In this document: positions 4,002-51,240 of the stretch, piece after piece
Position numbering within the stretch: position 1 is the stretch's first letter
How the letters are laid out: each line of letters begins with the position of its first letter
Source of the DNA: Hesseltinella vesiculosa
Taxonomy: Eukaryota > Mucoromycota > Mucoromycetes > Mucorales > Cunninghamellaceae
DNA length: 64,000 nucleotides
Direction of reading: 5' to 3'
Assembly: GCA_002104935.1 (NCBI GenBank)
Contig: MCGT01000001.1
Coordinates: forward strand, 558,001-622,000
Position numbers and translations under genes: made by a program
The notes under the pieces: model-generated
Databases searched by the model: none
The model's input: only the letters and a program-made list of their open reading frames with translations
Told to the model about the DNA's origin: nothing

Positions 4002-5969
4002 CTATTGCTTGACATCCAATACAGACCAACGACCAGCATCAGAATTGACAAGCATTTCGCAATAGAGGACTTTGCCAGAGTGGTAGACGACCCCGTCTTG
4101 TCGTACCAGGTACAGCGGGAGTTCAAGGCTTCGGCGACCCTCGCGAGTGACAAGGCGATCATGGTTGGCGACCAGCAAGTCTTGAGTGCTTGGGAGATGG
4201 ATGAGAAGATGGGTTTGATGGGGCTGTTGGGGTTGAGGTTGGATGGTGGTCTTGAGGGGACCATGGTGAGAGCCCAACCAGAGATCGAGCAGTTTGGGGG
4301 AGGGGACGGCCTGCATGAGATGTTGGCCAACGATGTCCAAGGTATGCTTTTCATGTTGATAATGAACGGAGGTGATGATGGGGAATGGCGTGATGCAGCG
4401 AGGCAAAGGACGTCCAGGTGAGTCGTTGGAGAGGCGTGGGGAGGAGGAGGGGGATAAGGATGCTCGTTGGCTGGACAGAGGTGGGGATGACAGTGGGGAT
4501 GCAGAAGACGAAGAGGCGGGTGGGGATGCAGGCAGGGAAGGGCGGACGGTTGGATAGGATGGCGAGGGCGACGACCGCTGGCTGTCGTAGAAGCTGTATT
4601 CAAAAGTGGAGACGCCGACAATGGTCCAGCACAAAAAGTCATCGACCTTTTCGTAGACGTCGAGCCCTTCAGGGATCATTTTTGAAGGCGCAAAGTCGAG
4701 GATGGTGGCGTGGTTGACGTCGTGGTTGGTTTCGTTGGTGGGTGAAGAGGCAGCCATGGCGCTGAGGTACATGGGAGGACCAGGGCGGGAGGAGGCCAGC
4801 TGGAGAGCGACTTTTTGCATCTGGCTGACGGGGCCATAGGCGCCAGCGACAATGCGGCCTTTGTCGACCTTGTGGATGATGTAAGGAGCAGAGCGAAGAC
4901 CAGTGCGGGTGTTGCGAAGGACAATCTGGCTGCCGTAGATGAGAGGCTGGGAGGCAGAAGAAGTGGTATCGGCGCAGTCGTCTTGGGAGGTGCGAGTGTG
5001 GTATTGAGGAGGCTGGCTAAGGACAAGGACATCAAAGGGGGTCCAGGAACTATTCTTGGCGCAAAGATGGCTGTCGGTGGAGGTCATGTACTTTGTGCGG
5101 ACGGTTTGGGAATTGATGCGGTTGAACAAGGACACAGGCTGGTTGACAAGAATGCAGCTGGAGACGTTGCGAGCCTTGGCCGTCTTTTTTGAAGGCTTGG
5201 AGATGATGGAGATGGGGTTGGAAAGAAACGTGGCATAGGGTGGGTGATGGGCGTCCTTGCCCTCATAGGCAGAGGAGGACAGGTCGACCCGCAAAGAAAA
5301 ATGCTTGGCTTTGGCTGTGCCGGTGACGTGAAGGTACTTGAATGTGCATTGATGAAGCTCATCCACAGGCGCATGCTGTTCTAGGCGTTTTTCACCGGTT
5401 TCGCCAACCACAGACATGGTCATGGCATGGACGGGGGACGAGGCAGCCTCGCCGGTTTGTAAGAGAACGACCGGAGGAGGGCAAAGGAAGCGTTTTTCGG
5501 AGCCGTAGGACTTTTGAGCGACGGCAGCGTGGTAACAGGTCACGGTGGTCATGCGGGAAGCAGCCAAATGGCTGGGCTGTTGGTGAAGAGGGGTGGTATC
5601 GGGGTTAGGCAGGACAGCAGGTTCGTCTTGTCGAGGAGCCAAGCGAGTGTGTTTCAATACAGGTAAAGGCGACGAATAATCAGTGTGGGCGAGCCGGCGT
5701 TTCATACTGATCGTGGTGTGTGGGTTGCCGGTATCGCCGTTGGAATCCAGCAGCGATTCAATAGACATGGTGGAGCTGGCTCGTTGCTGATGTTGGTGTT
5801 GGTCAATAGCAGATAACAAGGAGTCCATGGGAGAAGGTAGACTGATCAGTTGAATACGTTTACTGGAGCCGTAAACATGTTGGGAAATCACATGTGAATC
5901 GCGATGCTGATCGTCCTGTGGAGACTCTTTATGCTGTGCTTGATTTCGAGACGTTGATGACATTGGCAT
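4002..5969 (-). CDS. CSL (CBF1/RBPJ/Su(H)/LAG-1) family transcription factor
   Basis: Single-exon gene, 655 aa, ATG at 5969, stop at 4002. Sequence-specific DNA-binding protein of the CSL family, nuclear. Visible family signatures in order: the N-terminal Rel-like block with VAQKSYGSEKRFLCPPP (about residues 150-165), then FSLRVDLSSS, SNPISIISKPSKK, VSLFNRINSQTVRTKYM (the DNA-contacting region), then the beta-trefoil block with YGSQIVLRNTRTGLRSAP and IIHKVDKGR, and a C-terminal Rel/IPT-like part ending near residue 650. The first 130 residues and the stretch around 470-520 (Ser/Pro-rich) are low complexity. Fungi have CSL proteins but no Notch receptor, so in fungi these act as Notch-independent regulators (known from fission yeast Cbf11/Cbf12). 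Fungal class (Cbf11-like or Cbf12-like) cannot be set here. Confidence 0.93.
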   Translation of the reverse strand: MPMSSTSRNQAQHKESPQDDQHRDSHVISQHVYGSSKRIQLISLPSPMDSLLSAIDQHQHQQRASSTMSIESLLDSNGDTGNPHTTISMKRRLAHTDYSSPLPVLKHTRLAPRQDEPAVLPNPDTTPLHQQPSHLAASRMTTVTCYHAAVAQKSYGSEKRFLCPPPVVLLQTGEAASSPVHAMTMSVVGETGEKRLEQHAPVDELHQCTFKYLHVTGTAKAKHFSLRVDLSSSAYEGKDAHHPPYATFLSNPISIISKPSKKTAKARNVSSCILVNQPVSLFNRINSQTVRTKYMTSTDSHLCAKNSSWTPFDVLVLSQPPQYHTRTSQDDCADTTSSASQPLIYGSQIVLRNTRTGLRSAPYIIHKVDKGRIVAGAYGPVSQMQKVALQLASSRPGPPMYLSAMAASSPTNETNHDVNHATILDFAPSKMIPEGLDVYEKVDDFLCWTIVGVSTFEYSFYDSQRSSPSPSYPTVRPSLPASPPASSSSASPLSSPPLSSQRASLSPSSSPRLSNDSPGRPLPRCITPFPIITSVHYQHEKHTLDIVGQHLMQAVPSPKLLDLWLGSHHGPLKTTIQPQPQQPHQTHLLIHLPSTQDLLVANHDRLVTREGRRSLELPLYLVRQDGVVYHSGKVLYCEMLVNSDAGRWSVLDVKQ

Positions 5970-11454: not shown

Positions 11455-12908
11455 ATGTCCGACATGATCTCCAAACTTATCCTGCAAGAAAAACAAATCC
11501 TTAACCTGATCGTGCAATATCTAATTGGTACTTTGGAAGATCAAATCAGTACATATTCATCAGCTTTTTTCTTTTGCTAGGAACCGAAGCCGAGGATATG
11601 TACAGAACCAGTCCAACCGAATGGTTTAACGGCACGAGGTCTGATGTATTGTTCACCTGCGATGCTGATCCTTCCATGCCACCCATCCTCATAGAGGTGC
11701 AACAAGTTGTCGATGATACGTTTATGAGACGTCTGATCGGTTACTGTGTCTCGTTGGAGAAACAATACAGCATGCTCCCAATTGTCTTGGTTTTTCCTAT
11801 CAAGTCCATTCGATTTGAGGTGCTGAACAGAGTCAGAAAGCGTAAAGCCCATCCCTTTCTCATACATTACCCTTGCCATCCATGGGCGCAATCTTGCTTT
11901 CTTGTTGATCGAAATGTTTTTGAACAAGAATTACAACAACCTTTAGCCCCTTTTGCTAGCTTATGCCTCTTTTTGATGCGACAGGATCTGTCTCTCCACA
12001 GCTCGCCATACCGCTCTGACTCAACAATGCAGCTTTTGTACAGCCTGGCTCAGCATCATGTCGGCACTACCATCTTGAACCATGAAAATATCACTGACGA
12101 CGTTTTGAGATTTTGCAACAACCTGGAGGCTCGACTGGAGCAACTCTCACGTCTCATTCAGGATAATGATGACAGTGCTGGAGTACAAACAGCTTTGGAA
12201 GACATGACCGTGTTGGTGAAGTCATGTTATGCAAAGTACGAGCAGGAGTCCTCCCTTGCTGATGCCCACCCTGGACCATCTGTTGCTGCTGATACTCGCC
12301 ATGAACCATCCTCCCATGCTGATACCCGCCCAGAACCAGCCACTGTCACCGATGCCCACCCTGGACCATCTGTTGCTGCTGATACTCGCCATGAACCATC
12401 CTCCCATGCTGATACCCGCCCAGAATCAACCACTGCTGCTGATACTCGCCATGAACCATCCTCCCATGCTGATGCCCGCCCAGAACCATCCTCCCATGCT
12501 GATGCCCACCCAGAACCATCCTCCCATGCTGATGCCCGCCCAGAACCATCCTCCCATGCTGATGCCCGCCCAGAACCATCCTCCCATGCTGATGCCCGCC
12601 CAGAACCATCCTCCCATGCTGATGCCCACCCAGAACCATCCTCCCATGCTGATGCCCGCCCAGAACCAGCCACTGTCACCGATGCCCACCCCGAATCCGA
12701 ACAATCATCGCTTGTTGATGCCCACCCCGAACCATCTTCGCAAGCAAATTGGCGCTTCGTCGACTCCTGTGTTAATGATGATGGCCCTGTGTCTTGGAAT
12801 GCAATTTATAGACGAGGGAAACTCCAAGGATTGTTCAGCTCTTATTCCAATGCTGCGTCCGTAAAGCGAGCGTATTACCGAAAAATAGCCAAAAATAAAA
12901 AAAATTAG
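11455..12908 (+). CDS. PD-(D/E)XK nuclease-like protein with C-terminal 10-residue repeats
   Basis: Exons 11455-11527 and 11581-12908, 466 aa; the ATG follows TATAAA directly. The N-terminal region (about 1-200) has a restriction-endonuclease-like arrangement: a helix, GTEAEDMYRTSPTEWFNG, then SDVLF and a strand ending ILIEVQQ. The D...E-x-Q spacing resembles PD-(D/E)XK/Rpn-type nuclease cores. From memory, similar multicopy proteins of unknown role occur in Mucorales genomes; I cannot verify this here. The region from about 225 to 390 is a 10-residue repeat (HADARPEPSS and variants) coded by a 30-bp minisatellite, followed by a short unique basic tail. The gene sits between two patches of the GGTGAC hairpin repeat, which suggests it belongs to a repeat-associated or mobile unit. 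Function is unproven. Confidence 0.72.
12258..12735 (+). repeat. Coding minisatellite, 30-bp units
   Basis: Around 15 tandem 30-bp units inside the nuclease-like gene, each coding a variant of HADARPEPSS. The central units (about 12470-12660) are almost identical, while outer units carry variants such as DTRHEPSS and PATVTDAHP. Frame is kept throughout because the unit length is a multiple of three. Such arrays vary in copy number between strains. Confidence 0.95.
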
Positions 12909-47164: not shown

Positions 47165-47174
47165 AACTCTCGCA
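47165..47174. repeat. Target-site duplication, left copy
   Basis: AACTCTCGCA directly before the left TIR, identical to 49173-49182 directly after the right TIR. Confidence 0.93.
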
Positions 47175-47366
47175 AAAAAGAGTAGGCACAAGACAGAATT
47201 CACGGGAATTCATGTTACGCAGAGCCAAAAATCACCCAATAAAATCATTCTCCTCTTTTTAGTAATTTCATCTATCCTCACCTCCCCGGGTTTCTTATCA
47301 ACCAATGCCCATTTATCCATTTATCCTCACCTCTTCAATTCTTCTTTTGTCATCTGGCTATGAATC
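47175..47366 (+). repeat. Left terminal inverted repeat
   Basis: 192 bp, mirrored by 48981-49172. Differences seen: T for A in GAATTCACGG versus GAATACACGG near the outer end, and CTATGAATC versus CTTTGAATC at the inner end. Confidence 0.93.
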
Positions 47367-47435
47367 GTAAACAAAAAGCCAAAAAAAAAAAAACAAAAAA
47401 AAAGCGATTTCCCCTTTTCTTTTTTTTATGAACAA

Positions 47436-48861
47436 CTACATTTGCATGGTATACCTTGAGCTACCGTTCCAGGTACGTGGCGTATTGTTCGCTCTCCTTG
47501 AGCGTCGAACTTCTTCTAAATAGCGATCAATGTCATCAGACGCCAAAGCTTCATCGAATGGAGAGACTTGATCGCTTGGCAGGTGCTGTCGCATTTGACG
47601 AGACAATCTTTCGAAGTATGTGTCCTCGCTACGCTTGCGCTCATTGATCCGATCTTGCTCCTGCTGGATTTGCCTTTGACGTTCTCTTGATTCACGCATT
47701 GAAGTTTCGAGTCTCTCAACTAACTCTTCGTTGCTGGGCTGCCTTGGCTCGACACGTCGGCGCGTTCGTGGAACTGGGCTTGTCGATTCACCACCATCGT
47801 CATCAGTATCATCTATCACAATAACGTTGCTCGCTGGTGAGCTCGGGTGTGGTCGCCTATGTAGTTGAGGAGACTGGTGTAACAAGGTGCTAGGAGAGAC
47901 AGTGATGGAAGAAGGGACGTAAGGCCGACGACGCGGTGGTATGACAAGGACATCATCATCGACGTTTGGAGATCTCAAAGGAAGGGGCGGCTGGTTGGGA
48001 GATGTGCGAGGCGAAACAGAGATTCGATGAGTCGGAGGACTTGGAATGGCTCGGAAGTCGACTGGTGGCGACCTTGGTCGAGAAACCTCAAGATCTGCGG
48101 CTGGATTAACTAAAATATCAAGGTTGCCGATTTCAATGAACATAAATCGAGGGGCACTGTCATGCTGGAAATAAAAAGAAGCGCTTGAGTTTTTTTTTTT
48201 TTTAAGGGTATTTCTTACGGGAATGAGCTTAACATAAGGCGCGGAATGGTTTCTGGTAATGACATATCTTCTAGGAGTTAAGTGTCCCTGAGAATTTCCT
48301 AGATGACGGCTACGGTGCACGAGATGCTTGCACAGAAGGAAGCGGCTATGTATAAAGTAAGGGCAGCCGCATACCCAGCTAGCAGGGTCCGTTTGGTAAA
48401 GGGCATATCGATTGTTTTGCACCGGCCTTGACATCAAGTCCTTCCATTCATTTCGAAATTGGCCCTCCCATTCTGGAAGTACTTGGCGTGTAGCAATCTT
48501 CTGATTGAATGGGAAGGTGCATGTTGACAGGTAGAGTTCTGTTTTCGCTGAATTGGGAGTAAAAATCAGAAAAGTCGTCCCAGTCAAGCATAGCTTCAGG
48601 AGGAGGAGTACGCTGATCGGTAGCCTTGTTTCGACAGCGGATGCAAGTACGATACCAGCACCTACGGCCTTCAAACTCGATCAAGGCTCGCTTACTTTTG
48701 CAATCAGAACAATGAGCAAGTGGTGCTGCTGCAGAGGTTGACTGAATCAAGCGTGGATGAGGTTCAGTTAGAGGAAAGTTGTTGTTTCCATCTGTATTTT
48801 CATGTCGAATGAATCTTTCAATTGTAGAGTTAACTAAGCGTCCAATGTTGCGAGAAGTCAT
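47436..48861 (-). CDS. SWIM zinc-finger protein of the TIR element (apparent frame change)
   Basis: Minus strand from ATG 48861 to the stop at 47436. The first part (to about 48500) has a Cys-x2-Cys...Cys-x2-Cys cluster in HCSDCKSKRALIEF and RTCIRCRNKA, a likely zinc ribbon. After a one-base frame change near 48500-48515 the protein continues with RQVLPEWEGQFRNEWKDLM and a SWIM finger, CGC-x10-CKH (WVCGCPYFIHSRFLLCKHLV). A GT-AG intron at 48218-48165 follows, then a Pro/Ser/Arg-rich stretch, an acidic IVIDDTDDDGGE motif and a Glu/Arg-rich coiled coil ending near YTMQM. The frame change is either a one-base indel that breaks the gene or an unusual 28-nt intron. SWIM fingers bind DNA or protein; a role in recognising element ends is inference. 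No DDE transposase core is visible. Confidence 0.75.
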
Positions 48862-48980
48862 TTAAAGAACTGCTTGTTTAAAATTATTGGGAAGAAAAAA
48901 GAGTAAACGATTCAGCTAGTTTGAAAGTATTGGGAAGAAAAAAAGTAAACGATTCAGCTTGTTTCAAAAAAAAAGTAAAA

Positions 48981-49172
48981 GATTCAAAGCCAGATGACAA
49001 AAGAAGAATTGAAGAGGTGAGGATAAATGGATAAATGGGCATTGGTTGATAAGAAACCCGGGGAGGTGAGGATAGATGAAATTACTAAAAAGAGGAGAAT
49101 GATTTTATTGGGTGATTTTTGGCTCTGCGTAACATGAATTCCCGTGTATTCTGTCTTGTGCCTACTCTTTTT
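48981..49172 (-). repeat. Right terminal inverted repeat
   Basis: 192-bp counterpart of the left arm. Just inside it (48885-48990) lie about three imperfect copies of a short repeat containing AGTAAACGATTCAGCT. Confidence 0.93.
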
Positions 49173-49182
49173 AACTCTCGCA
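49173..49182. repeat. Target-site duplication, right copy
   Basis: AACTCTCGCA, identical to the left copy. It lies 132 bp before the ACADSB start codon, so the element sits in that gene's promoter region. Confidence 0.93.
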
Positions 49183-49314: not shown

Positions 49315-51240
49315 ATGTTCCGCTCTGCCCTTCGTGCCTCCAACATTGCTTCTCGTTCTTTCACTAAGAGGTAAAGTCATTGATGTCCAATTTTATGAAT
49401 TACAAGAGATGCATCCCTTTAATGTGGAACGTGGGAAAGAATTAGCTGAATTCACACGTCAAACTCACGTCTCCCTCTTTTAAGAACCTTTACGCAATCG
49501 ACCATTGCCCGCGCTATTGCCCCAGCTTCGCTGCGCAACTTCACTGATGAAGAACTCATGCTGAAGGATGCCGGTAAGTGCCAAAAGATGCTGCATGTAG
49601 AGTTTTCTAGCGAGATGGCTGACATGAAACGTGATTGCTCTCCTCTCTTTATATGACAGTGGCTCGCTTTGCTCAAGATGTCATCAAGCCCAAGGTTGCT
49701 GAAATGGACGAAAAAGAAGTCATGGACAAAGCTGTCATTGATGGTCTGTTTGAACAAGGTGTAAGTTTTGAGGCTGTGTCCGCGGCTTTGCGGGTTGGAA
49801 GCTCATTCGTGCTTTTTCTTGTAGCTGATGGGGATCGAAACTGAAGATGAATACGATGGTGCCAACTGCTCCTTTACCTCTGCCATTATCACCATCGAAG
49901 AATTGGCCAAGGTTGATCCTTCTGTCAGTGTGATGTGCGATGTCCAAGTAAGCAGCCATACTCGATCGAATGCCATGCAGAAGCTCATCTTTCATTTGTA
50001 TTTCATAGAACACTTTGGTTGGCACTGTTGTGCGCAAGTATGGTAGCAAGGATCTGAAGGAGCGCATCTTGCCTCGCTTGGCCACTAACACCGTTGGCTC
50101 CTTCTGTTTGTCCGAAGCTGGCTCTGGTACCGACGCCTTTGCTCTGCAAACCCGCGCCGAAGACAAGGGCGACCACTACTTGTTGAACGGTTCAAAGGTA
50201 AATCAGTCAGCGCCAGAGCCTGGTGTATTAGTTGCACGTTCATGGAATTGCTTTATTTTACTGTGTAGATGTGGATCACCAACTCTGGTGAAGCTGATGT
50301 CTTTTTGGTGTTTGCCAACGTGTACGTATCTACCGGATAGGCGTAGTGAAAAGCCGGCCTTTCTCAACTCACCCTGTCTTTTTTTTTTTTTGTCAAGTGA
50401 TCCTTCCAAGGGCTACAAGGGCATCACCTGTTTCGTTGTTGACAAATCCATGGGTGTCAAGGTTGCCAAGAAGGAAAGCAAGGTAAACTGAGGAGCTAGC
50501 GGAGATCATAATCGAGCTCCGATATTGACGACCGTCTTTCACTTTGACTTGATTCCAGCTGGGTATTCGCGCTTCCTCTACCTGCGTCTTGAACTTTGAC
50601 GATATCAAGGTGCCCAAGGAAAACGTTCTCGGTGAAGTTGGCAAGGGTTACAAGTATGCTATTGAAATCTTGAACGAAGGTCGCATTGGTATCGCTGCTC
50701 AAATGCTTGGTTTGGCCCAAGGCTGTTACGACATTGCCATGCCCTACATCTTTGAACGCAAACAATTCAACACTCGCATTGCTGACTTCCAAGGCATGCA
50801 GCACCAATACGCTCAAAGTAAGGGAACGGGACAAGCGGAAACCTGTCGGCTTACAGTTTTTTTTTCTTTGATTCTTTGTGATAACCAGTTGCCATGGAAA
50901 TCGAAGCTGCCCGTTTATTGACTTACAACGCTGCCCGCATGAAGGAAGAAGGTCACAACTTTGTCAAGGAAGCTGCCATGGCTAAGCTGTATGCCTCTGT
51001 TGTCGCTGAAAAGGCTGCCAGCAAGGCTATCGAATGGTGCGGTGGTGTTGGTTTCACTCGCGAACTCGGCGTTGAAAAGTTCTACCGTGATGCTAAGATC
51101 GGCGCTATCTACGAAGGTAAAAGAGTCAGCAAAAAGCAGGGAAGCAGAAGCCTCATATTATTATTCTTCCCCTCGAATCAGGCACCAGCAACATTCAACT
51201 GCAAACCATCGCCAAGTTGATCGCCAACGAATACAAATAA
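49315..51240 (+). CDS. ACADSB: Short/branched-chain acyl-CoA dehydrogenase, mitochondrial
   Basis: FAD enzyme oxidising 2-methyl-branched and short-chain acyl-CoAs in the mitochondrial matrix (isoleucine breakdown). Ten exons: 49315-49370, 49485-49573, 49660-49760, 49825-49947, 50009-50197, 50269-50321, 50398-50482, 50559-50817, 50889-51116, 51182-51240; 413 aa, the usual length. It starts with a basic Ser/Arg presequence ([19 protein letters not shown]). Family marks: [24 protein letters not shown], the FAD-contact [46 protein letters not shown], and the [16 protein letters not shown] block whose Glu in IYEG is the catalytic base. The close match along the whole length to animal ACADSB makes this assignment specific within the ACAD family. 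The 5' flank is cut by a transposon 142 bp upstream. Confidence 0.96.

What the first reader, a model, noticed from the sequence alone, without database searches (positions are those of the whole stretch)
47165..49182. Recent Mutator-like TIR element whose only gene is a SWIM zinc-finger protein without a transposase core
The element has 192-bp near-identical TIRs and a perfect 10-bp target-site duplication (AACTCTCGCA), so its ends are exact. The TSD length and long TIRs point to the MULE superfamily. Instead of a DDE transposase it codes a protein with an N-terminal C2C2 cluster, a SWIM finger (CGC-x10-CKH) and a coiled coil. It could be a non-autonomous element that kept only the DNA/protein-recognition part of a MULE transposase, or a two-component family whose catalytic protein is supplied in trans. 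I know of no described fungal element with this layout, but could not search.
Basis: partly seen in the sequence, partly recalled or inferred. Interest (0 to 1): 0.85.

Follow-up and report, generated by a model that had tools for sequence, protein, structure and literature searches.

The report
Internally deleted fungal MULE transposon
This is a shortened, non-autonomous copy of an ordinary Mutator-like transposon of a mucoralean fungus that lost the catalytic middle of its transposase gene in one deletion and was copied on, presumably by its intact near-identical relatives elsewhere in the same genome.

Summary
The gene is not. In the same genome the TIR finds four 3.9-kb copies and another 2-kb copy, each with its own perfect 9-10-bp duplication. 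The long copies code a predicted six-exon, 1011-aa protein, open in 3 of 4, with a Pfam MULE transposase domain (E 4.6e-9), a DDE triad, a C2C2 cluster and a SWIM-type motif. The window copy lacks one 1.94-kb stretch: residues 118-671, with D, D and E. The join is out of frame, so the supposed protein 47436-48861 is two ORFs in different frames. Both short copies share the junction and a private base change, so the derivative moved after forming, most simply by transposase in trans. PMC6446971 tabulates Mucoromycota MULEs with 10-bp TSD and SWIM finger. New member of a known kind. A second derivative family of about 0.74 kb, from a related MULE group, has at least 28 places.

The parts
47165..47174 (.). 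left target-site duplication AACTCTCGCA
   Evidence: identical to 49173-49182
47175..47366 (+). left TIR, 192 bp (3' side of the transposase gene)
   Evidence: 190 of 192 bases complementary to the right TIR; same TIR on 4 long and 1 other short copy
47436..48511 (-). retained 3' part of the transposase gene: rest of exon 5 (SWIM-type motif), intron 5 and exon 6, stop at 47436-47438
   Evidence: matches the long copies from their base 2600/2601 on
48165..48218 (-). intron 5 of the intact gene (predicted, GT...AG)
   Evidence: no transcript data
48324..48371 (-). SWIM-type motif CxCx10CxH (CGCPYFIHSRFLLCKH)
   Evidence: aligned in 10 of 11 homologues; Pfam SWIM not called in this protein
48510..48511 (-). 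deletion junction (about 1.94 kb lost; base 48511 fits both sides)
   Evidence: window copy keeps long-copy bases 1-662 and 2600/2601-3935; same junction in L013
48448..48861 (-). truncated ORF: 117 native N-terminal residues of exon 1, then 20 out-of-frame residues and a stop
48634..48711 (-). C2C2 cluster (CSDC...CIRC), transposase residues 51-76
48981..49172 (-). right TIR, 192 bp (5' side of the transposase gene)
49173..49182 (.). right target-site duplication AACTCTCGCA

Best explanation
The element is a non-autonomous internal-deletion derivative of a 3.9-kb Mutator-like (MULE) DNA transposon of a mucoralean fungus. Shown by sequence: one deletion of about 1.94 kb, with 1 base of ambiguity at the junction, removed transposase residues 118-671 with the DDE triad and left both TIRs, the N-terminal C2C2 segment and the SWIM/C-terminal segment, the latter out of frame. 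Shown by sequence: the deleted form exists at two sites with different flanks and TSDs, the same junction and a shared private base change. Inferred: the deletion arose once, perhaps by interrupted gap repair after excision (recalled as the usual proposal); the derivative then transposed because transposase from the intact long copies acts on its TIRs in trans. The retained coding remnants need no function.
For:: the TIR finds the long copies; 6 of 6 copies examined (4 long, 2 short) have perfect, site-specific 9-10-bp TSDs; junction; 1011-aa model open in 3 of 4 long copies. Pfam MULE PF10551, 4.6e-9, 37.1 bits against a cut-off of 27.6; only 2 positions with base differences in the alignment of 6 copies (gaps apart), one of them private to the two short copies. 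D386, D465 and E635 aligned in 11, 10 and 11 of 11 homologues; the DDE exon differs from those of two related families with dN/dS 0.18 and 0.17; two related repeat copies show the uninterrupted target of long copy L011.
Against: No transcript or transposition assay. Trans-mobilisation is inferred from two copies. The gene model's introns are predicted, and intron 2 has an unusual donor (GTTGAC). No empty site for the window copy itself was found (only its own two flanks). The L011 empty sites are paralogues at 81% and 76% identity. The gap-repair origin is not tested. Pfam does not call SWIM in the protein, and of two homologues scanned, P0001 and P0008, the MULE match is below the cut-off in both.
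Confidence: 0.96

Rival explanations
1. The short element is an active repressor unit, like the KP deletion derivative of the P element (recalled comparison): its 137-aa C2C2 stub, or a protein restored by splicing over the junction, binds the TIRs and dampens transposition.
For: The C2C2 segment and the TIRs survive in both derivative families looked at in this genome. In a scan of donors near the junction and introns of 38-129 nt, two GT-AG pairs (64 and 88 nt, one donor) could on paper put exon 1 in frame with the SWIM part.
Against: The frame is broken at the junction. The shared candidate donor GTCAAC is a poor one. In the second family the retained ORF drifts without sign of constraint: 62 synonymous, 211 missense, 16 nonsense changes against 74.1, 200.3 and 14.6 expected. 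With two near-identical copies, selection cannot be tested in the 2-kb family itself.
Confidence: 0.05
2. A distinct two-component transposon: this element's SWIM protein is the DNA-recognition subunit and a separate gene elsewhere supplies only the catalytic subunit.
For: The short copy alone has no DDE domain (0 Pfam families at E up to 1 for either ORF).
Against: The long copies code all parts in one predicted gene; the window copy differs from each of them by 1 base in 1976-1996 aligned bases outside gaps; its frame is broken.
Confidence: 0.01
3. Assembly artefact: a collapsed long copy.
For: Copies are nearly identical, which invites misassembly.
Against: Two loci with different flanks and TSDs carry the same junction and a base not seen in the 4 long copies.
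Confidence: 0.02

Closest known systems
MULE-Mucorales (group 5 in Table 1 of PMC6446971; passages read)
   Same: Mucoromycota host, one ORF, SWIM finger, 10-bp TSD
   Different: TIRs listed as 40 bp there, 192 bp here; TSDs here are 9 or 10 bp; sequences of that group were not aligned here, so membership in it is not shown
MULE protein of Absidia glauca (P0008); PMC6446971 lists a Mucoromycota group MULE-Ag, which I did not link to it
   Same: 41% identity over 39% of the searched part; DSTFKTN and ESHWRVLK motifs
   Different: catalogued protein is shorter (680 aa), has gaps where D465 and the SWIM motif lie, and its Pfam MULE match is below the cut-off
Hop of Fusarium oxysporum (described in passages of PMC9168764)
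   Same: fungal MULE, active, with a single transposase gene
   Different: not compared by sequence here
MuDR deletion derivatives of maize (title seen in the reference list of PMC9168764; paper not read)
   Same: deletion derivatives of a MULE
   Different: plant; MuDR has two genes

Membership tests
Mutator-like elements (MULE superfamily) | 8-11-bp target-site duplication | tested here: met
   6 of 6 copies examined have perfect 9- or 10-bp TSDs; range from PMC6446971
Mutator-like elements (MULE superfamily) | long terminal inverted repeats | tested here: met
   192 bp, 190 of 192 in the window copy
Mutator-like elements (MULE superfamily) | MULE DDE transposase domain in the autonomous copies | tested here: met
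   PF10551 at 37.1 bits, cut-off 27.6; D, D, E aligned with homologues
Mutator-like elements (MULE superfamily) | DDE transposase in the window copy itself | tested here: not met
   deleted; 0 Pfam families for either ORF: hence a non-autonomous member, not an autonomous element
MULE with SWIM finger | CxCxnCxH after the DDE domain | tested here: inconclusive
   motif present and aligned in 10 of 11 homologues, but the Pfam SWIM model is not reached at E up to 1; in P0001 it is at E 0.059, below the cut-off
MULE-Mucorales clade (PMC6446971) | phylogenetic placement with that clade's transposases | not tested
Non-autonomous deletion derivative | collinear with an autonomous copy except for internal deletion(s), both TIRs kept | tested here: met
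Non-autonomous deletion derivative | mobilised in trans by the autonomous copy's transposase | not testable with these tools
   two short copies with different TSDs imply movement after deletion; no assay

The most novel reading that the evidence does not exclude
The deletion derivative codes a C2C2 stub, or a spliced C2C2-SWIM fusion, that binds the TIRs and acts as a dominant regulator of the MULE, a fungal counterpart of the KP repressors of P elements.
Probability: 0.05. Interest if true: 0.5.

Novelty: new member of a known kind. Interest (0 to 1): 0.2.

Why it matters
It explains an apparently odd element layout by a common process. It also shows a MULE family that looks very recently active in a mucoralean fungus: across the six copies only two positions carry base differences, 3 of 4 long copies have an open transposase gene, and a deletion derivative has moved. 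That makes it a natural candidate for ordinary transposition assays with an element from an early-diverging fungus.

Tried and rejected
Distinct SWIM-only transposon: rejected because long copies with the same TIRs code a DDE transposase. Selected stub protein: tested on the larger 0.74-kb derivative family as a stand-in and not supported. That count treats each copy as independent, so inherited changes count repeatedly, and codons with gaps were left out. The same count in the two other frames gave 71 synonymous, 209 missense, 6 nonsense (expected 80.6, 195.2, 10.2) and 77, 177, 32 (expected 76.3, 195.0, 14.7), so the true frame shows no more constraint on amino acids than its controls. Empty site of the window copy: searched, only its own two flanks returned. 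Empty site of L011: two related repeat copies at 81% and 76% identity run through the site; they support the insertion boundary but are paralogues, not alleles. Literature searches: Mutator-like element + SWIM + transposase + fungi, 6 papers; at least 3 of MULE, Mucoromycota, DNA transposon, terminal inverted repeat, 130 papers, 20 listed; Gongronella + transposable element, 2 papers; at least 5 of 6 terms on Hop and deletion derivatives, 15 papers; at least 4 of 5 terms on MuDR, internal deletion and gap repair, 17 papers, 10 listed; Mucorales + MULE + non-autonomous + transposase, 1 paper. Only passages of PMC6446971 and PMC9168764 were read; the rest were seen as listings. No structure prediction was run.

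Full report
Observation. The window has an element at 47175-49172 with 192-bp TIRs (190 of 192 complementary) inside a perfect 10-bp duplication AACTCTCGCA. The 25-base end motif is found twice in 64 kb, mean 0.00 in 100 shuffles. The ends are real. The described protein is not one ORF: 48448-48861 (137 aa) and 47436-48434 (332 aa), both on the minus strand, are in different frames, and neither has a Pfam match at E up to 1.

Relatives in the same genome. The genome held for the window has 27.05 Mb in 85 contigs. A search with the TIR gave 26 matching pieces. Among them are the ends of four long copies, L009 (3935 bp), L010 (3930), L011 (3930), L012 (3914), and of one further short copy, L013 (1999 bp). 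All six copies examined, the window's included, have perfect TSDs of 9-10 bp, all different: AACTCTCGCA (window), TAGGTTAAGG (L009), GACAAAAAT (L010), AGGATGTCCA (L011), TTTGAAAGT (L012), AATACATTT (L013). The other pieces belong to truncated or diverged relatives and were not dissected one by one; I fetched 11 such places (L014-L024) and used them in the BLAST, and L017 and L021 also. L011 lies in a repeat that I take for a LINE from a reverse-transcriptase-like ORF (recalled label); two related repeat copies run through the site without the element.

The intact gene. The long copies have six predicted exons and a 1011-aa product, open in L009, L010 and L011 and frameshifted in L012 by one base in exon 3. 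Pfam finds the MULE transposase domain at 37.1 bits against a cut-off of 27.6. A protein search with residues 300-800 gave 11 homologues; the two with organism names are from Absidia glauca and Coprinopsis cinerea, and 5 of 11 carry a precomputed MULE domain. In an alignment with all 11, D386 and E635 are matched in 11 and D465 in 10; the CxCx10CxH motif at 719-734 in 10; the C2C2 cluster is complete in 6 (read by eye from the printed blocks; the triad is assigned by motif). The Pfam SWIM model was not reached, so 'SWIM' rests on the motif and the homologues. Introns are predicted; intron 2 has an unusual donor.

The deletion. The window copy follows the long copy L009 to base 662 and again from base 2600/2601, 1 base fitting both sides. 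Residues 118-671, with the triad, are gone. The join enters exon 5 in another phase, so 117 native residues are followed by 20 foreign ones and a stop. L013 has the same junction. Over all six copies the alignment has two positions with base differences, gaps apart: one is private to the two short copies, the other separates L009 from the other long ones. Length differences in gaps, several of them in homopolymer runs, are more numerous. The short form therefore most simply arose once and moved at least once afterwards. No date is given, as I have no substitution rate for this fungus.

Mechanism. PMC9168764 states that non-autonomous transposons mostly contain internal deletions or mutations and are moved by their autonomous partners (passage). 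That is the reading here. Interrupted gap repair is the usual proposal for such deletions (recalled) and is not tested. Between L010 and the related elements at C1 (L017) and C41 (L021) the DDE exon has dN/dS 0.18 and 0.17, as expected if these lineages kept working transposases.

Is the remnant protein useful? A second, separate derivative family gives a test. Exon-1 hits (125 match rows) outnumber DDE hits (41 rows). Following 6 of those without a DDE hit led to elements of about 0.74 kb with TIRs of about 76-88 bp, whose protein match covers residues 31-180 of the transposase at most. One search gave 28 places with 794 bits or more, a lower bound because 40 of 110 candidates were scored. 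I fetched 26 loci in all, 25 of these 28 and one split copy, L069. A script found credible 8-9-bp flanking duplications in 5 of 26 (L047, L053, L064, L068, L070); a sixth hit, L051, was an artefact inside the TIR, and 20 gave none within the narrow margin searched. A likely parent group, with TIR pieces 93-94% alike, is at C2, C10, C13 and C80, where DDE and SWIM matches also lie. In the retained ORF, changes against the majority sequence are 62 synonymous, 211 missense and 16 nonsense, against 74.1, 200.3 and 14.6 expected from the family's own mutation spectrum; 16 of 26 copies have at least one stop in that frame, some through indels. This looks like neutral decay. It speaks against a selected C2C2 stub there, and only by analogy in the 2-kb family.

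Host and setting. The window's LAG1/CSL-type protein at 4002-5969 (Pfam) has its best named match in Gongronella butleri (72% identity over 66%), so the host is most likely a Mucorales fungus near Gongronella, family Cunninghamellaceae. The element lies upstream of an ORF piece, 49653-49844, with a match just below the cut-off to the acyl-CoA dehydrogenase N-domain.

Known or new. PMC6446971 tabulates MULE-Mucorales: Mucoromycota, 10-bp TSD, 40-bp TIR, one ORF, SWIM. The family here fits the kind, with longer TIRs; clade membership was not tested. The finding is a new member of a known kind and its strange layout is explained.

Noticed in passing
L045:1002-1745, L046:1044-1776, and L047-L070 (genome G000): A second non-autonomous MULE family of about 0.74 kb with TIRs of about 76-88 bp and only part of the C2C2 exon; 28 strong places; its ORF shows no sign of constraint.
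   Followed up: yes
G000 C2:571012-573803, C80:3861-6653, C13:89528-92318, C10:206446-209235: Related MULE copies with DDE and SWIM matches that look like the parent group of the 0.74-kb family.
   Followed up: partly
L010 flanks (G000 C12 near 1156633 and 1160562): This long copy seems to lie inside another MULE: the flank resembles the TIR of the 0.74-kb family (by eye), and exon-1 matches lie beyond it at 1160928-1162154.
   Followed up: no
window 11598-12908 (+): 436-aa ORF with no Pfam match at E up to 0.1 and a run of near-identical repeats of the type HADARPEPSS in its second half.
   Followed up: no
L013:138-500: The second short copy is inserted beside a long tandem tract that reads as CRK-type repeats.
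   Followed up: no
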